Virus record (IMG/VR): IMGVR_UViG_3300010885_047889 | Coordinates: 1-21,640 of that record | DNA length: 21,640 nt | Reading direction: 5' to 3' (one strand) | Origin: a virus | Shown: positions 10,303-18,088 of the stretch, one piece after another | How positions within the stretch are numbered: the stretch's first letter is position 1 | How the letters are laid out: each line of letters starts with the position of its first letter | Program-made: the position numbers and the translations under genes | Notes under the pieces: generated by a model | What the model saw: the letters and a program-made list of their open reading frames with translations, nothing else | Database searches by the model: none | Told to the model about the DNA's origin: nothing

Positions 10303-11865
10303 TTATCTGAATACCGCAACAAAGGGCATGGGTGGTGTTACCACTTCGCCGTGATCTCTAAGTTGATTATCAATACCCAAATCAAATGTTTGTAATAGCT
10401 GTAGCATACGCACAGCCAATAATGCGGACATTACTAGGTCATCGGTTTCACCGGGTTTTGCCGCATAACTTACTCCGTGCGCTACAAAAGTTTTTAACTC
10501 GGATATTAGACTACTACTACGAATTTTCATTTTTCCTGTTTCAATCAAGGTTTTTAATTTGTTGCAGGCTGCAAGTTTAGGCTTGTTGCTGGTGTTAAAT
10601 CCTTTACGATATCTACGACTACTACCGCCGCCCCCTTCACTTAAGAAATATCCCTGTATGTTTTCTTCGCCATATTCAGCAATACTAATAAGAGCCGCTT
10701 CACCAATGGTGTTGTTTTCTATACTAAAATAAATGTTTTTAGGATCATTTATAGTTTCATTGAGATGTTTAACAATGTCGGCCAAAATACGAATTTGCTC
10801 AGGAATTGGTGTTCGATTGTGACGCCATTCAGCAATTTGTTCCGTAGTATTGGCCTCAAATACTTGTATTGCAGACGGGTCGCCGCCGGTACCAAGACTT
10901 GGGTCCAATGCTACTACATATATTCTATCAGCTTTTGGTCTTTGATACCAGCGAACCTGTCCAGTTTTATACAGTGGTTCGTGGCCTGACAAATCTATTA
11001 GTTTAGCAGGAGCAATTAAAGTTTCATCGTTGATAATAAATTCACAACACATTTCTCGACGGAAACGATCTTCACCTAATTGTGCTCGTTGCTCTGCGGC
11101 CCATTTTTCGTCACGATCTGGATGTTCATTCCAGTAGCTACGATAGGCCTTAAATCCGTTGATGCCGAGATCAGTAGGGGTGCCAAATTCATCTTCGCAC
11201 TTGTTAGCACCTTTCCATAACAATGCAAACTGATCTTCGTCTGAGTTTGGAGTCGAAGTAATGATCGCCTTACCACCAGTTGACAGTGTAGGCGATATGG
11301 AAGTCCAGAATTCTTTAGCTATGCCGGGTCGAACAAATGCAAACTCATCTGCGTATAGTAAGGATATACTCATACCACGACCGGTGTTTTCAGTTGTTGT
11401 TGCTGATACAATACGACTTCCGTTTTCAAAGTCTAAACTTAATTTATTATAGCTGGTACAGCCTGCTCGTATGTAGTCTGGACATAGCTCATAGGCATAT
11501 CGAATGCGGGTCATAATTTCTTGAGAGCCAGTATACTTGTGTGCCGCTACAAGAATAGTACTGTCAGGAACAAACATGGCATACCATAACAAGTATCCTG
11601 CGGCACTGGTTGACTTACCCGTTTGTCGAGGCATCATACTAATACTAAAACGATAATTATGGTAGGTATCAATTAGACGTTTTTGATAGTCAAATGGATG
11701 ATACAACATTTTACCTCTAATAGGATGCTGTATATAAAAGAAATTGTCCATAAAGTATTGCGGACCTGTAACCGGATCCGCACATTTCAAAAACTCTATT
11801 AACTGTTCGTCGGTAAAAGCCGTTTTTTTATAAGGACTTTTAACTAAGGATGTTTCATCTGCCAT
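10303..11865 (-). CDS. 17: Terminase large subunit (gp17)
   Basis: The product is 520 aa, shorter than T4 gp17 (610). The N-terminal ATPase has Walker A MPRQTGKS (78-85), Walker B LLYADE (169-174) with catalytic E174, and the coupling motif ITSTPN (202-207). The C-terminal RNase H-fold nuclease has D321 (VALDPSLG), E383 (FSIENN) and the D475-D476 pair (ETDDLVMSAL). It forms the packaging motor at the portal and cuts concatemeric DNA at headful. The small subunit lies about 5.7 kb upstream rather than adjacent as in T4, with structural, nuclease and radical SAM genes between. No clear ribosome site precedes the ATG, six bases from the previous stop. Confidence 0.96.
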   Translation of the reverse strand: MADETSLVKSPYKKTAFTDEQLIEFLKCADPVTGPQYFMDNFFYIQHPIRGKMLYHPFDYQKRLIDTYHNYRFSISMMPRQTGKSTSAAGYLLWYAMFVPDSTILVAAHKYTGSQEIMTRIRYAYELCPDYIRAGCTSYNKLSLDFENGSRIVSATTTENTGRGMSISLLYADEFAFVRPGIAKEFWTSISPTLSTGGKAIITSTPNSDEDQFALLWKGANKCEDEFGTPTDLGINGFKAYRSYWNEHPDRDEKWAAEQRAQLGEDRFRREMCCEFIINDETLIAPAKLIDLSGHEPLYKTGQVRWYQRPKADRIYVVALDPSLGTGGDPSAIQVFEANTTEQIAEWRHNRTPIPEQIRILADIVKHLNETINDPKNIYFSIENNTIGEAALISIAEYGEENIQGYFLSEGGGGSSRRYRKGFNTSNKPKLAACNKLKTLIETGKMKIRSSSLISELKTFVAHGVSYAAKPGETDDLVMSALLAVRMLQLLQTFDLGIDNQLRDHGEVVTPPMPFVAVFR

Positions 11866-11871
11866 AGTTGT

Positions 11872-12987
11872 TTACTTAGCCGTTAATTCTGGCCAAAGAT
11901 GCCTAAATTGACCTTGTTGATCTGTGTGATATTTTGATTCTATTTCAGAAATATGTTGATAGAAATCTATTCTTAAATCTTCTAACTCGGCATTAAAATG
12001 TATATTCTTAAAAAACTCTTCTTCGCTAGGTGTACATAATCCAGATTCTAACAGGCAAACTTGTTCTTGTTTGGCCTGTTGTATAAATGAGGAACCTAAC
12101 CGCTGTGGATCCAGATATTCGGGCTGATATAAACTTTGCCAGTGTATCGTTAATCCTCTATTGCGAGCAAACTCAGTAAACTCCACCAGGCGTGTGGCAT
12201 TGTAGATGTTATATACAGCATGTATTCCACCCCAGTGCCCTTGCTTCATTAACGCTTGAATAAGATCAAGATTATGTAATAGCTTGTTCCATGTGGCTCC
12301 GTGTCTAACATACTCAAAACGACTGCCTACGTTGTCAAAACTGATTGACCATCCTACCTTTTGACGATCGGCTAACTTTTTAAAGATTTTATTGGACTCT
12401 AAATCTACACTACCATTAGTTATCAATGTAATAACTGAATCAGTGGGTATAACATCTAACAGTCGCTCGTTCTCTGGCAGCAATAATGGTTCGCCGCCTA
12501 CAAGTGCTACCTCTTTGATATATTGTTGATGTCCTTCCAAGTATTCACACACTTGTTCATAGTAAGGTCGAGTACCAGACTTAACTGATATGTTTTTTAA
12601 TGCGGCCCATTTTGAACTGCACTTGTCGCCGCAATAGTTACAACTTAGATTACAAGTGGTATTCCAGCGCACATCTATTAGGACAGGATGATGATCTAGG
12701 TCAGATACTGTGGTAGGATCAAAATCAGGATTTAGATTGTTATGCCAGTTGCGCTCACTGCGTCCATAACGTTCGGCCTGCACACAATTATAACAGTAAG
12801 CATGAGGCTTGCCCTGGCGTAAAGTTTGTCTTATTTCTTGCATCACCGGGCCGTGTAGCACCTCGGTGATTGATTGCTCATTAAGATTACCCAGCATGTT
12901 TGGATCACCGGCACAACATGTTTTTACATCACCTCTGGGATTGATGTGCAGGCCCCGCCAAGGAGCCGCACAATAAAAATTGCTCAT
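11872..12987 (-). CDS. Radical SAM protein with N-terminal twitch/SPASM-like cysteines
   Basis: The product is 371 aa. An N-terminal cysteine region (FYCAAPWRGLHINPRGDVKTCC, C6, C24, C25, with C65 and C68 in YCYNC) resembles an auxiliary iron-sulfur (twitch/SPASM) module placed ahead of the core. The radical SAM cluster is CNLSCNYC (C112, C116, C119), followed by the SAM-contact GGEP (164-167) and TNGS (about 191-194). It should cleave SAM to a 5'-deoxyadenosyl radical; related enzymes modify peptides, sugars or cofactors. Radical SAM proteins of this layout recur in T4-like environmental phages without known substrate. No obvious RiPP precursor stands beside it. It lies between a secreted nuclease and terL in a late gene block. 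Confidence 0.85.
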   Translation of the reverse strand: MSNFYCAAPWRGLHINPRGDVKTCCAGDPNMLGNLNEQSITEVLHGPVMQEIRQTLRQGKPHAYCYNCVQAERYGRSERNWHNNLNPDFDPTTVSDLDHHPVLIDVRWNTTCNLSCNYCGDKCSSKWAALKNISVKSGTRPYYEQVCEYLEGHQQYIKEVALVGGEPLLLPENERLLDVIPTDSVITLITNGSVDLESNKIFKKLADRQKVGWSISFDNVGSRFEYVRHGATWNKLLHNLDLIQALMKQGHWGGIHAVYNIYNATRLVEFTEFARNRGLTIHWQSLYQPEYLDPQRLGSSFIQQAKQEQVCLLESGLCTPSEEEFFKNIHFNAELEDLRIDFYQHISEIESKYHTDQQGQFRHLWPELTAK

Positions 12988-13005: not shown

Positions 13006-13707
13006 TTACTGACCTAAGTTGAATTTCATTCCTGTAGCCTGCTCTACTGCGGTCATTGTAGTTTGATATTTTGGTAAATCTTCTACAGGAAGTGGAGTAT
13101 TGGGAATTAAGTATGCCGTGACAACCTTGGTTTGTTTGTCAATGATAACTTTGTACAGGTGTGTTGGAACACCTACACCGTTGCCAATGGTCTTGTGTCC
13201 TGGAGCAAAGATACCGCCACTGATAATATAGAAGTCACCACCTTTAAGAACCCAAAAGCGTTCCCAGGTTTCTAACTGCTTCCAGATACCACGATTGTTG
13301 TTAGGAACTTGGGCGACCATGTTAGTTAGAAAGAAGCTTTCACTCATGGCCTGTGGTGTGTGTGTAAAGTTACCAGCCGGAGCCATGTGTCCTCGGTCAT
13401 ACGGTTGTCCCACAAAATCACTAAGCTGTGCTTGGCATTGCGGATGTACTTGTGGATCGGGGCGGAAGTCATCTCTACGTTTGTTAACTCCGTTAATCAT
13501 GGCTGGCAAGACATGTTCAAACACAGCAATAGGTGCCTTGACGCCGCAACGGTGAATGATAGCATAGTTACTTTTACATAACTCTTGATCGCCGGGCTGT
13601 GCCTGATACTGTGGAGTTCCGTTTACCGTAAACTGTGGACATTGTTTGTTGATCTGGGCTAGCGCGGCCAGGGGTGTAAAAAGTAATACTAAAAGTAGCT
13701 TGTTCAT
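13006..13707 (-). CDS. Secreted DNA/RNA non-specific endonuclease (NUC family)
   Basis: The product is 233 aa. Residues 1-18 form a Sec signal peptide (MNKLLLVLLFTPLAALAQ) with an ALA|Q-type signal peptidase I site and no lipobox. The mature protein has the beta-beta-alpha-Me nuclease motif DRGH (104-107, catalytic H107), then N138 and E146 in NNNRGIWKQLE, the Mg2+-binding helix of Serratia-type nucleases, and five or so cysteines suited to the periplasm. It would degrade DNA and RNA without sequence preference outside the cytoplasm. For a phage this could clear extracellular DNA at lysis, salvage nucleotides or destroy superinfecting DNA; none is shown. An AATAAATA late-promoter variant and AAGGA ribosome site lie ahead. 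Confidence 0.9.
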   Translation of the reverse strand: MNKLLLVLLFTPLAALAQINKQCPQFTVNGTPQYQAQPGDQELCKSNYAIIHRCGVKAPIAVFEHVLPAMINGVNKRRDDFRPDPQVHPQCQAQLSDFVGQPYDRGHMAPAGNFTHTPQAMSESFFLTNMVAQVPNNNRGIWKQLETWERFWVLKGGDFYIISGGIFAPGHKTIGNGVGVPTHLYKVIIDKQTKVVTAYLIPNTPLPVEDLPKYQTTMTAVEQATGMKFNLGQ

Positions 13708-14045: not shown

Positions 14046-14432
14046 TTACCTTGGATAGCCCTTAAATGCTTTAACTGGACTGATCTTGTCCACTGACGGT
14101 GGTTCATGGCTTTGGGCTGTGCCAATTAATTTTTTCCCACCCGGGGTCTTGGTCATTTTTAATGCTTGATCTATAATTGGATCCACGTTCTTGTTTATAC
14201 CGGCTACTAAGGCATGATTTCCAAAGACTTCTTCTGCATTCCAGGGCAATATATAAGGATTCACACTATCCTCGACTGCATTGCTCCTGGCACGAGCCAG
14301 GGCCATGCCAAATCTATAAATTTGATATGGCTGATCAGAACTCAATCCCGGAAGTATAAAAGTTTGACGCAGTGGGTCGGCTTGCTCAGGTGGTAACCTT
14401 TGTTCTTCGGTGATAAATTCTCGGGCTCTCAT
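14046..14432 (-). CDS. Putative packaged internal protein with CTS-like N-terminus (paralog B)
   Basis: The product is 128 aa. The N-terminus MRAREFITEE has the form of the T4 internal-protein capsid-targeting sequence (as I recall MKTYQEFIAE for IPIII): basic residue, x-x-E-F-hydrophobic-x-E. It ends in I-T-E, which fits the gp21 prohead protease rule (L/I)-x-E. The C-terminus SPVKAFKGYPR is shared with the next upstream gene (SPVTGFKGYPR), and both have a helical, Ala/Asn-rich middle, so they are probably diverged tandem duplicates. If packaged, the mature protein would enter the host with DNA. It starts by ATGA coupling. Function is inferred from the termini only. Confidence 0.7.
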   Translation of the reverse strand: MRAREFITEEQRLPPEQADPLRQTFILPGLSSDQPYQIYRFGMALARARSNAVEDSVNPYILPWNAEEVFGNHALVAGINKNVDPIIDQALKMTKTPGGKKLIGTAQSHEPPSVDKISPVKAFKGYPR

Positions 14433-14800
14433 CTGGGATAGCCTTTAAATCCAGTGACAGGACTGCGTTTATTTGTTGACTCTAATTCTTTACTTTTTAG
14501 ATCACCGTGATTGAGATCTTCATATTCTGATCCTACAGCCTGGAATGCTTTTTCTAACATGTCTTGTTCAACATCAGTGTAGGGCATGGCCAGATTGTAA
14601 CGTCCTGCCCAAGATTCATGATCTATATCTGGAACAAATGTGCCGTCTGTAGACGCAACAGCCATCATAACACGATTGAGTTCGTAAAATCTATCAGCTA
14701 GATCTACATCTCTAAACTTGTTAAGTCCGACGGTGGCCTGGCTTTTTCGTTGGCCAATCTTGCCGGCCTGTTTCTCAATGAGAAACTCTTGAGCTCGCAT
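14429..14800 (-). CDS. Putative packaged internal protein with CTS-like N-terminus (paralog A)
   Basis: The product is 123 aa. It starts MRAQEFLIEK, again a basic, E-F-hydrophobic-x-E decapeptide like the T4 capsid-targeting sequence, with L-I-E as a candidate prohead-protease site. The middle is helical and charged (DRFYELNRVMMAVASTDGTF, YTDVEQDMLEKAFQAVG) and the end is SPVTGFKGYPR, matching the C-terminus of the next gene. A predicted mature chain of about 114 aa would remain after cleavage. It is not recognised beyond these features. It follows the 98-aa protein by two bases and overlaps its paralog by four. Confidence 0.7.
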   Translation of the reverse strand: MRAQEFLIEKQAGKIGQRKSQATVGLNKFRDVDLADRFYELNRVMMAVASTDGTFVPDIDHESWAGRYNLAMPYTDVEQDMLEKAFQAVGSEYEDLNHGDLKSKELESTNKRSPVTGFKGYPR

Positions 14801-14802
14801 GA

Positions 14803-15099
14803 TTAGGTTCCAGCGGCGTTGTATACACCCGATTGTGCTGAAGTGGTGGTGCCAAGTGCTCTGACAGTAAATGTGGTTCCTACCATGGTGAGTTTATTGC
14901 CGGCACCAACGTAAATTTCTTGTGTGGTCCCATTGGGCACCGAAACCACATTGGCATACAAATTGCCCACAGGTGCAGCTGATCCTAGGGCCAGGGCATA
15001 TACCTGATAGGTAACATCTGCACTGCCGGCACTAATTTCTGCTTTGTCTGTGGTCCATACTACATTAGCTGCCGCAGTGTTAATTACTTGAATAGCCAT
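14803..15099 (-). CDS. Small beta-rich putative virion protein
   Basis: The product is 98 aa, rich in Ala, Thr, Val and Gly, with alternating hydrophobic strands (VTYQVYALALGS, GNLYANVVSV, QEIYVGAGNKLTMVGTTFTVRAL). It lacks charge clusters, cysteines and membrane helices. This composition fits a small immunoglobulin-like or jelly-roll head decoration or fibre protein; I do not recognise the family. It sits between the 617-aa acidic protein and the two internal-protein-like paralogs. A GGTTAATCAA ribosome site overlaps the preceding stop region. Confidence 0.7.
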   Translation of the reverse strand: MAIQVINTAAANVVWTTDKAEISAGSADVTYQVYALALGSAAPVGNLYANVVSVPNGTTQEIYVGAGNKLTMVGTTFTVRALGTTTSAQSGVYNAAGT

Positions 15100-15104
15100 T
15101 TTGA

Positions 15105-16958
15105 TTAACCTTTATAATTTTTCCAAGTCTTGAACAAACTACGTTCAAGTTCTACGTTCTCTTCCATACTTGTTTGGCGACGCGATTGGCTTGCAACTAC
15201 CGGAATGGTTGTTTGACCAGTTGATTTAGGACCATTTAATCCGCCTGAGTATGTGCGTAGCTCTGGTTGGGCTGCTAATGTTTCCGTATCAGTGGGCCAA
15301 TCTGGTGAATTCTCATCGACAACTTCGGCACAACCGCAGGGTGCTTCACCACACTGTGGGCATGATGCGGCTTGATTGCTATGTCTACTTAGGCCAGCCA
15401 TTTTTAACAATTCTGCTAACTTGTCTGCATCTTCGTCAGTTGCAGTAACAGTAATTGACTTTTGTGCTTGACCTTGTTCGTCTGTACTCATGTTAACTGT
15501 AATATTCATACTTTCAGCAATTATGTTTTCAACTTTACTATTAATTCCTTCGTACACACCTTTACCAAACTGCATACTTTTGCTAGCTTTAGGAGCAGAA
15601 GAAGCTGTAGCTACACTCCCACTAGTTGTTGTTTCATCAACCTTTTTTTCTTTCTTGTCAGCGACTGCTTTCTTAAATGTTTCTTTTTTGTCGCCGTCTT
15701 TGTCCATATCTAAGAAGTCTGGCTTGCCGGCTTCGTTAACTTCACTGGCTTTTTCATTAACTTCTTGGTCCTGATTCTGCATGTATTCATCTACAGCAAT
15801 CATCATGCCTTCAATTTTGGCCAACTTGGATTGGACCCATTCTGGTAAATTGTCGTCATCACCTAAGATTTTATGCAAGGCTTGTGCATGGCGAACAATA
15901 GTTTTGATATCGTGTTTGGCCGATTCGCCTTCTTGATCGTATTCACCACGATCAGTTACTGGAATTTCTTCAGCAATTGCATCTTTACTGGCTAACTTGC
16001 TACGACCGCTGTGTTTAGCACCGATAGCACGTTTTGTTCCAGCAGGACGACCTTTTTTCTTAATAGTGATTGTGGTTATTTCTGTGTCGTCATCTTCCGG
16101 TTCTGGTTTACGAGTATATGTTGTAGCTTTCATTCCGCTGGGCAGTGTACGTTCTTTTTTATCAAACTTACCAGTGCCTTTTTCTTTTTCGCGGCTCTTC
16201 AACCATGCATCCATCTCAGCATAGCCTTCATCCATTTTTGCTTCACCAAGGCCTGTTGGGTCAGCTTCTACTACTTTGTATTTTTTACCATCAACTTCAA
16301 ATTCATCTTTGTGTTGAGCTTTTGCCTTGGCCAAGTTGCCTGTGAACTCGTTGCCTTCTTCCATGTCGGCTTCGTCCATTTTGTCGTAGCGATTACGAAT
16401 CTGATTCATTTTTTCTTTGCCAGCATGTTCACGGCCGGCCTTGCGTAGAGCATCCATGCCCTCTTTACCATATTTTTTGTTGCCGAGATAAGCCTGTAAA
16501 GCACTTTCTTCCATGCTGTCACACTTGCATGGTGAACAATCACATGCTGGGCAATGGCCTTCTTCAAGACTACTTGTATCTGTAAATTCTTTACCACCTA
16601 CTTTAAACTTACCACCTTTTGGTGTAGTTTTGAGTGCTCCAGTAAAAGCATTACCTTCGTCAGTGACATCTTCCTTGGCATGACGCAACTTGTTTAACAC
16701 CGCACCAGCTACACGCTCGCCAGCGGCTTTGCTACCATATCTGGCACCTGCTGACTTAGCAATCTTACTAAAGTTCTTTCCTGGCTTACCAATGTCCTTA
16801 CCTGCAGCAGCTTTTTTGGCACTGTAATCAGTTTCTTCTAATGCTTCGGCTAATTGACTACAAGGAGCAACAGATTTCACTTCCTTGGCAGTTTGCATAG
16901 CATCTTGTTTTGCAGCCAATTTGGCCATGCGTTGATTCAATTCGTAAAAAAATGTCAT
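15105..16958 (-). CDS. Modular Lys/Glu-rich putative virion protein with Cys clusters
   Basis: The product is 617 aa, highly charged and probably largely disordered. Two copies of an EGN-x-FTG module occur (101-107 and 201-207), each leading to a short KF-V-GK-F/Y strand. Two cysteine clusters, CPACDCSPCKC (136-146) and CPQCGEAPCGC (533-543), could bind zinc. LPEWVQSKLAKIEGMM (371-386) and FLDMDKDGDKKETF (415-428), the latter with an EF-hand-like D-x-D-x-D-G loop, recur in T4-like environmental phage proteins. LLKMAGLSRH (517-526) matches an AGL motif in the 825-aa protein. Several (L/I)-x-E sites, such as IIAE at 479-482, could be cut by prohead protease. A scaffold-core or internal capsid role is likely, unproven. 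A GAGGA site precedes the ATG. Confidence 0.7.
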   Translation of the reverse strand: MTFFYELNQRMAKLAAKQDAMQTAKEVKSVAPCSQLAEALEETDYSAKKAAAGKDIGKPGKNFSKIAKSAGARYGSKAAGERVAGAVLNKLRHAKEDVTDEGNAFTGALKTTPKGGKFKVGGKEFTDTSSLEEGHCPACDCSPCKCDSMEESALQAYLGNKKYGKEGMDALRKAGREHAGKEKMNQIRNRYDKMDEADMEEGNEFTGNLAKAKAQHKDEFEVDGKKYKVVEADPTGLGEAKMDEGYAEMDAWLKSREKEKGTGKFDKKERTLPSGMKATTYTRKPEPEDDDTEITTITIKKKGRPAGTKRAIGAKHSGRSKLASKDAIAEEIPVTDRGEYDQEGESAKHDIKTIVRHAQALHKILGDDDNLPEWVQSKLAKIEGMMIAVDEYMQNQDQEVNEKASEVNEAGKPDFLDMDKDGDKKETFKKAVADKKEKKVDETTTSGSVATASSAPKASKSMQFGKGVYEGINSKVENIIAESMNITVNMSTDEQGQAQKSITVTATDEDADKLAELLKMAGLSRHSNQAASCPQCGEAPCGCAEVVDENSPDWPTDTETLAAQPELRTYSGGLNGPKSTGQTTIPVVASQSRRQTSMEENVELERSLFKTWKNYKG

Positions 16959-16962
16959 TCTA

Positions 16963-17571
16963 TTATCCTCGGGGTTGGGCGCCGGTGGCTGGGCGCGGTG
17001 GGCGTTTAACTTTGGTCATTGGGCTGGTTACACCCATGGGCAAATCATTTGTAGTTTCTGCAGGAGGAGTCTTGCCACCAGCTACAGTAAAGTCACTGCG
17101 ATATGCATTTTTTAACACTGCATGTTGATATGGATTGGCCGAGTAATCTTTACTCAGGGCCTTTTGTTCTGCATCAGGAGCAGGAAAATCTGTATCAGTT
17201 AACAGGTCTTTATTTTGAACTTCAACCTTTTCACGCTCACTATCCATGCTGTTTTCAAATGGAGTGGTCAACATGATAATGCGGTTTGGATCTAAAAACA
17301 ATAATTGCGCTAACTGTTTGATTTGAGGCTCAATAGCTGGATAGCGAAATTCAACATCTACTGATGTTACACTGTCATTTGCATGTTTTGGAAAATCTGC
17401 TGGTGCCAACTGAACTGGAGTGGTTTTAGACTTGCCGAAGCTCACAATGTCAAATTGTTGACATTTTTCTTCCAGCTGTTTAAGCCATCCGCTATCAACA
17501 TCACCTACAATTTTGATCCTATAAGAATAGGTTCTTTCGGATTCTGCTAAGTATTCCTTGAAAAGTTTCAT
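16963..17571 (-). CDS. Putative virion protein with CTS-like N-terminus and ferredoxin-like domain
   Basis: The product is 202 aa. The N-terminus MKLFKEYLAES resembles the T4 capsid-targeting sequence and ends in L-A-E, a gp21-type cleavage site. Residues 15-105 alternate strands and helices (SYRIKIVGDVD, LKQLEEKCQQFDIVSFGKSK, SVTSVDVEFRYP, EPQIKQLAQLLFL) in a beta-alpha-beta order typical of a ferredoxin-like fold. The C-terminal 60 residues are Pro/Lys-rich and end RPPRPATGAQPRG. I believe homologs occur near the terminase genes of T4-like environmental phages, function unknown. It has its own late promoter and an AAGGAAATTATT ribosome site, and follows gp16. Confidence 0.75.
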   Translation of the reverse strand: MKLFKEYLAESERTYSYRIKIVGDVDSGWLKQLEEKCQQFDIVSFGKSKTTPVQLAPADFPKHANDSVTSVDVEFRYPAIEPQIKQLAQLLFLDPNRIIMLTTPFENSMDSEREKVEVQNKDLLTDTDFPAPDAEQKALSKDYSANPYQHAVLKNAYRSDFTVAGGKTPPAETTNDLPMGVTSPMTKVKRPPRPATGAQPRG

Positions 17572-17602: not shown

Positions 17603-18088
17603 TTAATCTTTTGATCGATCGCCAATCAGGCGTTCCAGCAAATCATTACGACTAAGCACTTGCCCATGTGCTGTTTCTACAGTGGGATCTTGGCTGGAGT
17701 TTTTGGCCGCATCTTGATCTAACTTCATTTTTTTCATCTGCAGATCAAGCATTTTTAATTTTTTTTGTAATTTGGTAGTTTTAGCAGTCAGAGCATGTCC
17801 TAACATGGTACCAGCTACTGCAAACAATTCTGCAGCATAGCGACTGTCGACATTAAATCCTAAATCTGTAAGATTCTCAAAAGTTTCCGTGGCTTTTGTC
17901 GCAATATCATCTAGTTCTCGGTCACTGCTATCTAGGTCGCGAACAGCAGGCAATGCTTGATCAATTTTATCTATAGTAGCATCTATTTCCACTATAGCAG
18001 CTCGAGTTTCTTCTGTTGTTTGTGGCTGTGCTTCTTCGGCATCAACTGTCTGCTCAAACCCAAATAAGGATTCCAATTTTTTGGTCAT
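17603..18088 (-). CDS. 16: Terminase small subunit, gp16-like
   Basis: The product is 161 aa, near T4 gp16 (164). It starts with an acidic segment, has helices rich in Asp/Glu and Ala (IDATIDKIDQALPAVRDLDSSDRELDDIATKATETFENL) and then a long basic helix (AGTMLGHALTAKTTKLQKKL, LQMKKMKLDQDAA, about 101-138) likely to be coiled coil. By eye the segment from ATKATETF to LKMLDLQMKKMK follows the T4 gp16 central region, in which helices oligomerise the subunit. gp16 recognises concatemeric DNA and stimulates gp17. The N-terminal form MTKKLESLFGF is typical of environmental T4-like small terminases. An AGGGT ribosome site precedes the ATG. It lies immediately after the gp4-like gene. Confidence 0.78.
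   Translation of the reverse strand: MTKKLESLFGFEQTVDAEEAQPQTTEETRAAIVEIDATIDKIDQALPAVRDLDSSDRELDDIATKATETFENLTDLGFNVDSRYAAELFAVAGTMLGHALTAKTTKLQKKLKMLDLQMKKMKLDQDAAKNSSQDPTVETAHGQVLSRNDLLERLIGDRSKD

What the first reader, a model, noticed from the sequence alone, without database searches (positions are those of the whole stretch)
14046..17571. Three proteins with capsid-targeting-like N-termini: candidate ejected effectors
MRAREFITE, MRAQEFLIE and MKLFKEYLAE share basic-x-x-E-(F/Y)-hydrophobic-x-E, the form of the T4 internal-protein targeting peptide, and each ends in a (L/I)-x-E prohead-protease site. Their mature chains are otherwise unlike. This suggests that unrelated cargoes are addressed to the capsid and delivered with DNA. 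T4 internal proteins include anti-restriction and host-takeover factors, so these are good candidates for new effectors.
Basis: partly seen in the sequence, partly recalled or inferred. Interest (0 to 1): 0.65.

Follow-up and report, generated by a model that had tools for sequence, protein, structure and literature searches.

The report
Phage head-targeting tags on three proteins
Three proteins of an uncultured T4-like giant phage begin with a nine- or ten-residue tag that very likely sends them into the phage head and is then cut off; a near-identical tag sits on at least twenty unrelated protein types in related phages, including a predicted kinase, acetyltransferases and cell-wall enzymes, so it offers a way to find proteins that phages may inject into bacteria.

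Summary
(1) The 128- and 123-aa proteins are paralogues over their whole length (both end SPVxxFKGYPR), so the window holds two cargo families, not three. (2) All three genes are standard residents of the gp16-gp17 interval of this jumbo-phage group, so they look more like conserved internal head proteins than host-specific effectors. The targeting idea itself is strongly supported. In relatives MRAxEF[ILV]xE and MKxFxxYLxE are near-invariant, with conservation in the MRA family collapsing right after the Glu. MKLFKEYLAE aligns without gaps to T4 MKTYQEFIAE, including every position mapped as functional in T4. Relatives encode a gp21-type protease, and their major capsid protein carries the same (Y/F)LxE site. 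A distant homologue of the 202-aa protein is recorded in PA5oct virions. A scan of 2.9 million viral contigs found at least 120 stretches with the MRA tag (13 for a permuted control, 0 backwards), on 22 mutually dissimilar clusters: T7-kinase-like, GNAT, GH19, ParB-like, DUF6267. Best reading: a T4-type capsid-targeting and prohead-cleavage module, elaborated to load many cargoes. Cleavage, packaging and ejection remain untested.

The parts
14046..14432 (-). 128-aa protein, MRAREFITE|EQRLPPE..., ends SPVKAFKGYPR; member of the MRAxEF/GYPR paralogue family; predicted mature form 119 aa, pI 9.0
14406..14432 (-). nine-codon N-terminal tag MRAREFITE with presumed gp21-type cut after Glu9
   Evidence: information content about 4 bits at R2, A3, E5, F6, E9, dropping to about 2 bits or less (mostly 1-1.6) from position 10 on in 68 non-redundant relatives
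14429..14800 (-). 123-aa protein, MRAQEFLIE|KQAGKI..., ends SPVTGFKGYPR; paralogue of the 128-aa protein, reading frames overlap by ATGA
14774..14800 (-). nine-codon N-terminal tag MRAQEFLIE
16963..17571 (-). 202-aa virion-type protein MKLFKEYLAE|SERTYSYRIKI...; predicted ferredoxin/S6-like core (about residues 12-102) and disordered C-terminal tail
17542..17571 (-). ten-codon N-terminal tag MKLFKEYLAE, aligning without gaps with T4 IPII/IPIII MKTYQEFIAE
15105..16958 (-). 617-aa charged, repetitive structural-region protein between the tagged genes (PHROG 24078 match, unknown function); untagged, conserved position
14803..15099 (-). 98-aa untagged protein; in relatives this interval can instead hold an MK..KxY(L/I)xE-tagged 245-353 aa protein
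17603..18088 (-). gene upstream of the 202-aa protein in conserved order, gp16-like by position only (PHROG 16202, unknown function)
10303..11865 (-). gp17-like large terminase, other end of the interval (assigned from sequence and synteny)

Best explanation
The three N-termini are cleavable capsid-targeting tags of the T4 internal-protein type. During assembly the tag binds the prohead core and carries the protein inside the prohead (inferred). A gp21-type prohead protease then cuts after the terminal Glu of (F/Y)(I/L/V)xE, as it is presumed to do in the major capsid protein, leaving the mature chain in the head (inferred), from where it may leave with the DNA (inferred). In this jumbo-phage group the MRAxEF[ILV]xE form is a portable module on many unrelated proteins (shown by sequence). 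The three proteins in the window are most likely standing internal head proteins (one virion-protein family plus a tandem paralogue pair); a host-takeover function is possible but not indicated. My confidence: targeting and cleavage tag about 0.8, mature proteins in the virion about 0.75, ejection about 0.55, a counter-defence or takeover role for these three about 0.3.
For: Conservation is confined to the tag in the MRA families: about 4 bits at R2, A3, E5, F6, E9, about 3 at position 7 (I/L/V), about 1-2 from position 10. In the MK family K2, F4, Y7, L8, E10 are near-invariant. Tag codons vary synonymously, so the peptide is selected, not the DNA. T4 control: nearly the same pattern over 568 T4 ORFs hits only IPII, IPIII (both MKTYQEFIAE) and gp61.1. 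T4 positions 4 and 7 govern targeting and 8 and 10 processing (PMC9026906), and all four match in MKLFKEYLAE. gp21-type protease (PF03420) in 15 of 20 related records and in all 7 tagged contigs over 140 kb; gp23 in the same 15, with conserved (Y/F)L(K/R/V)E|NA about 40 residues in. PA5oct homologue EST35_0202 is recorded as a structural protein by ESI-MS/MS; 38 of 41 members match PHROG 14802 'virion structural protein'. Modularity: viral scan at least 120 stretches against 0 (backwards) and 13 (permuted); 22 clusters of mature chains; in-frame stops just upstream; the L271 245-aa protein shares only residues 1-13 with the 202-aa protein; DUF6267 homologues in cyanophages start without the tag.
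Against: No mass spectrometry on any MRA-tagged protein. The MRA tag lacks the aromatic at position 4 that matters in T4 and is one residue shorter. In PA5oct and Phosso homologues of the 202-aa protein the Glu10 is missing (MKSFRDYYDAS, MKNFYEYLSSV), so there the N-terminus cannot be cut at this site although the PA5oct protein is in virions; the conserved MKxFxxY may partly serve the fold. The window itself is a 21.6-kb fragment without gp21. Cut sites in gp23 are inferred from conservation only.
Confidence: 0.77

Rival explanations
1. The tagged proteins in the window are prohead core or scaffold components (like T4 gp67, gp68 or the morphogenetic role of IPIII), targeted and trimmed for head assembly, with no effector role after infection.
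For: They sit in a conserved structural/packaging interval; 36 of 56 contigs spanning it carry exactly two MRAxEF ORFs of this size, and the 202-aa family extends to PA5oct and Phosso in the same neighbourhood.
Against: The dedicated core genes (gp67/68-like, gp21, gp22, gp23) lie in a separate cluster; T4 internal proteins are both packaged and ejected, so the two roles are not exclusive.
Confidence: 0.45
2. The three are ejected effectors against host defences or for host takeover.
For: The same tag is carried elsewhere by proteins of effector type: a T7-kinase-like protein (PHROG 15752, E=8e-10), GNATs (PF00583, E=7e-8) whose homologues lie in DarB-like and PLxRFG proteins, ParB-like and DUF6267 proteins. 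The paralogue pair diverges fast behind the tag.
Against: No recognisable domain in the 128- or 123-aa protein (AlphaFold pLDDT 63). Near-universal presence in place suggests a core role rather than a variable weapon.
Confidence: 0.3
3. The shared N-termini are only the first helix of homologous folds, not a tag.
For: AlphaFold gives a short helix at residues 4-11 in both models; two of the three proteins are homologous.
Against: MRAxEF[ILV]xE precedes 22 mutually dissimilar clusters; homologues without the tag exist; in the MRA family conservation ends at the Glu; L271 and the 202-aa protein share only the first 13 residues.
Confidence: 0.06
4. The tag addresses proteins elsewhere (tail, membrane, or another protease pathway) rather than the head.
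For: Some tagged cargoes are GH19 cell-wall enzymes, one with a Tat signal directly behind the tag, unusual for a head cargo.
Against: The Glu-ending motif equals the inferred gp21 site in gp23, matches T4 head tags, and all 7 large tagged contigs carry gp21.
Confidence: 0.08

Closest known systems
T4 capsid targeting sequence (CTS) of IPI, IPII, IPIII and Alt, cut by gp21 (Mullaney and Black 1996; review PMC9026906)
   Same: Short N-terminal peptide ending in (L/I)xE; MKLFKEYLAE matches MKTYQEFIAE at K2, aromatics 4 and 7, E6, aliphatic 8, A9, E10; gp21-type protease in the group; unrelated mature chains
   Different: The MRAxEF form is nine residues with Arg-Ala and no aromatic at 4; it is found on far more cargo types; the window's genes sit between gp16 and gp17; the 123- and 202-aa mature chains are acidic (pI about 5.7), T4 internal proteins are basic
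PA5oct-type virion protein EST35_0202 (Arenbergviridae; PHROG 14802)
   Same: Homologue of the 202-aa protein in the same neighbourhood; K2, F4, Y7 conserved; recorded in virions by ESI-MS/MS
   Different: No Glu10, so no cut at that site
Polyvalent proteins injected by phages (Iyer et al. 2017, PMC5512222)
   Same: Tagged proteins of relatives carry similar domain types (GNAT, kinase, ParB-like), and the GNAT is homologous to parts of DarB-like and PLxRFG proteins
   Different: Here as separate, individually tagged proteins, not one giant polypeptide
phiKZ/SPN3US ejection-protein propeptides (PMC5694885, PMC9026906)
   Same: Jumbo phages whose head proteins are cut after xxE by a gp21 relative, with propeptides thought to target
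   Different: Propeptides there are mostly over 100 residues; here nine or ten

Membership tests
T4 internal proteins / CTS cargo | N-terminal decapeptide with aromatic residues at 4 and 7, aliphatic at 8, Glu at 10 (202-aa protein) | tested here: met
   202-aa protein and its relatives (39 sequences): F4, Y7, L8, E10 invariant; T4 peptides read from the T4 record
T4 internal proteins / CTS cargo | The same decapeptide in the 128- and 123-aa proteins | tested here: not met
   Nine residues, no aromatic at 4; only the E-F-(I/L/V)-x-E half matches. They are not filed as strict T4-CTS members, only as working like it
T4 internal proteins / CTS cargo | Phage encodes a gp21-type prohead protease | tested here: met
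   In relatives: 15 of 20 records, 7 of 7 tagged contigs over 140 kb. The window fragment lacks that region
T4 internal proteins / CTS cargo | Same cleavage consensus in the major capsid protein | tested here: met
   gp23 of relatives: conserved (Y/F)L(K/R/V)E|NA in 12 sequences; the cut itself is inferred
T4 internal proteins / CTS cargo | Sequence homology of the mature chain to T4 internal proteins | tested here: inconclusive
   202-aa protein: weak match to PHROG 2667 'internal head protein', E=0.007, residues 1-50 including the tag; none for the other two
T4 internal proteins / CTS cargo | Protein present in the virion | not testable with these tools
   Only indirect: PA5oct homologue of the 202-aa protein annotated ESI-MS/MS
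T4 internal proteins / CTS cargo | N-terminal peptide removed, protein ejected with DNA | not testable with these tools
   Needs proteomics and infection assays
Polyvalent proteins | Two or more effector domains in one injected polypeptide | tested here: not met
   The three window proteins have no Pfam domain and are 123-202 aa

The most novel reading that the evidence does not exclude
MRAxEF[ILV]xE is a general delivery address of environmental T4-like jumbo phages: a modular nine-residue tag, different from T4's, under which dozens of unrelated enzymes (kinases, acetyltransferases, ParB-like and GH19 enzymes), some in tandem islands, are loaded into the head, released by the prohead protease and injected, so that a phage's injected repertoire could be read directly from the genome.
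Probability: 0.5. Interest if true: 0.85.

Novelty: new variant of a known kind. Interest (0 to 1): 0.7.

Why it matters
Proteins that phages carry in the head and inject are hard to find because their mature parts share nothing. A short, statistically clean N-terminal address would let one list such cargo from metagenomes. None of the 15 papers in the held library that use the term 'capsid targeting sequence' together with 'phage' shows, from its title and abstract, a description of this tag; the library lacks most subscription journals.

Tried and rejected
tblastn of the 128- and 123-aa proteins, and of a divergent relative (L413), against 50,697 phage records gave nothing, so no cultured phage could lend virion data for the MRA family. 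AlphaFold on the 123-aa protein gave pLDDT 63 / pTM 0.39; no fold search was run on it. The fold matches of the 202-aa protein to ribosomal protein S6 show a common ferredoxin-like fold and are not taken as function. Pfam gave no domain for the three window proteins. The strict MRA pattern has no match in PA5oct or Phosso, and among PA5oct ORFs only one 79-aa ORF of doubtful relevance fits the looser pattern, so the MRA tag is not universal among homologues. The PA5oct proteomics paper itself was not read; the virion claim rests on the GenBank notes. The idea that the tag is a DNA element was rejected because its codons vary freely.
Full report
WHAT IS THERE. The window is a 21.6-kb uncultured virus contig with T4-like structural and packaging genes on the minus strand. 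The three N-termini exist as stated: MRAREFITE (14046-14432), MRAQEFLIE (14429-14800), MKLFKEYLAE (16963-17571). In six related genomes the pattern M[RK].{1,4}[FY][LIVMFA]xE occurs at 6 of 10,992 internal methionines. Two or more such gene starts in a window of about 25 genes would have P about 9e-5. In G009, the record with the closest copy of the 123-aa protein, the ORFs fitting the pattern are exactly the counterparts of these three genes.

A CORRECTION. The 128- and 123-aa proteins are paralogues: 27% identity over the full length, E=1e-8, common end SPVxxFKGYPR, and an alignment of 61 members keeps 16 invariant columns. They are unrelated to the 202-aa protein. So the window shows two cargo families under two forms of the tag.

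CONSERVATION OF THE TAG. In 68 non-redundant relatives of each MRA protein, positions R2, A3, E5, F6, E9 hold about 4 bits and position 7 (I/L/V) about 3; from position 10 on it falls to about 2 or less, mostly 1-1.6. This is the profile of a peptide cut off after Glu9. In the 202-aa family K2, F4, Y7, L8, E10, S11 are near-invariant while 3, 5 and 6 vary; there the chain behind the tag is conserved too. Codons inside the MRA tag vary synonymously (AGA/CGA; GCC/GCT/GCA/GCG; GAG/GAA; TTT/TTC), so the peptide is under selection.

COMPARISON WITH T4. I read the T4 peptides from the T4 record: IPII and IPIII MKTYQEFIAE, IPI MKTFKEFTSTTTPVSTITE, Alt MELITELFDE, gp24 MAKINELLRE, gp23 ...FLTE|A (cut positions from established knowledge). 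A closely similar pattern applied to 568 T4 ORFs finds only IPII, IPIII and the 54-aa gp61.1. According to the review PMC9026906, residues 4 and 7 of the T4 peptide govern targeting and 8 and 10 govern processing. MKLFKEYLAE matches at all four; MRAxEF[ILV]xE matches only the EF-aliphatic-x-E half.

PROTEASE AND SITE. A gp21-type protease (PF03420) and a gp23-type capsid protein (PF07068) are each found in 15 of 20 related records. In relatives gp21 sits in a cluster with gp67/68-like, gp22-like and gp23 genes (these names are by position and appearance). gp23 carries a conserved (Y/F)L(K/R/V)E|NA about 40 residues in, the counterpart of T4's FLTE|A. That gp21 cuts there, and in the tags, is inference.

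VIRION EVIDENCE. The 202-aa protein has homologues in PA5oct and relatives (33% identity over residues 1-103, E=2e-8) and in Sinorhizobium phage Phosso. 38 of 41 family members match PHROG 14802 'virion structural protein'. PA5oct and Phosso keep K2, F4, Y7 but lose Glu10, so targeting-type residues outlast the cut site. Its predicted fold is a ferredoxin/S6-like core with a disordered tail.

THE TAG AS A MODULE. Of 101 tagged ORFs read, 93 close with a stop inside the stretch held, and nearly all have an in-frame stop a short way upstream. With the tag removed they fall into 22 mutually dissimilar clusters. Besides the GYPR family (the largest, 45) they include a T7-kinase-like protein (L423, PHROG 15752 E=8e-10), GNATs (L427, PF00583 E=7e-8), GH19 enzymes (L455, L461, L442; E between 1e-14 and 1e-12), a ParB-like protein (L405), DUF6267 (L401) and DUF6934 (L396). 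DUF6267 homologues in cultured cyanophages begin at the domain without the tag (MAKNTHLEHLEDD...), and HTVC008M has MYNDLLVE|DKNTHLEHLED. The GNAT is homologous to parts of DarB-like and PLxRFG proteins of other phages, domain types described in injected polyvalent proteins (PMC5512222). In a relative of the window (L271), a 245-aa neighbour starting MKSLKDYLAESE shares its first 13 residues with the 202-aa protein and nothing else. All seven tagged contigs longer than 140 kb have gp21. The 22-cluster count comes from an arbitrary first batch of hits and is a lower bound on diversity, not a census; the linkage was by BLAST at E=1e-3, so remote homology between clusters is not excluded.

WHAT THE THREE PROTEINS PROBABLY DO. 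Of 56 contigs that span the interval, 36 carry exactly two MRAxEF ORFs of this size and 13 carry one. Such constancy, with the structural neighbours, suggests standing internal head proteins. T4 IPIII shows that one protein can matter for head assembly and also act in the infected host (PMC9026906; PMC9391042), so an effector role is not excluded. I put targeting and cleavage at about 0.8, ejection at about 0.55, and a counter-defence or takeover role for these three at about 0.3.

LIMITS. Nothing here shows packaging, cleavage or ejection. The window's own genome is not available beyond 21.6 kb. The relatives are uncultured, so hosts are unknown. Weak domain matches below curated cut-offs (several GNAT and ParB hits, Kinase-PolyVal E=0.005) are leads only. 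The literature check was limited to the held open-access library.

Noticed in passing
L394, L396, L400, L461, L384: Different MRAxEF-tagged ORFs stand in tandem, some directly abutting or overlapping (for example L394: 193, 206 and 282 aa; L400: 293 and 277 aa), like small islands of tagged cargo.
   Followed up: partly
L442:3861-4493 (-), L394:2992-3609 (+): GH19-type protein with the tag followed at once by a Tat signal (MRATEFVTE-MDRRGFLRG; PF10518 E=5e-5); L394 has MRAVEFIAE-IDRRGFLGA. If cut after Glu9, a Tat substrate would be released; reason unknown.
   Followed up: no
L329:18966-19130 (-), phage T4 gene 61.1: The 54-aa T4 protein gp61.1 (annotated hypothetical) starts MKTFKEFIKE, a perfect fit to the T4 capsid-targeting peptide form.
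   Followed up: no
G002:287163-294860 (in L295): A 1408-aa protein with an amidoligase domain (PF12224) is followed by tagged 180-aa and GNAT-like 160-aa proteins and a NUDIX protein starting MRANEF without the xxE end.
   Followed up: partly
G001:82202-89164, G002:293431-294597: Multi-domain proteins contain repeated (Q/E/K/N/A)GVAE(G/D/S/N/A) motifs (7 and 3 observed genome-wide against about 0.2 in shuffles); possibly linkers that could be prohead-protease sites. Absent in G004, G005, G009.
   Followed up: partly
window 13006-13707 (-): DNA/RNA non-specific endonuclease (PF01223 E=3e-41) with a signal-peptide-like start (MNKLLLVLLFTPLAALAQ) in the structural interval; in G004 and G002 a different secreted-looking protein occupies the place.
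   Followed up: no
window 11872-12987 (-): Radical-SAM-like protein (CNLSCNYCG cysteine motif) next to gp17, conserved in G009, G004 and G002; function unknown.
   Followed up: no
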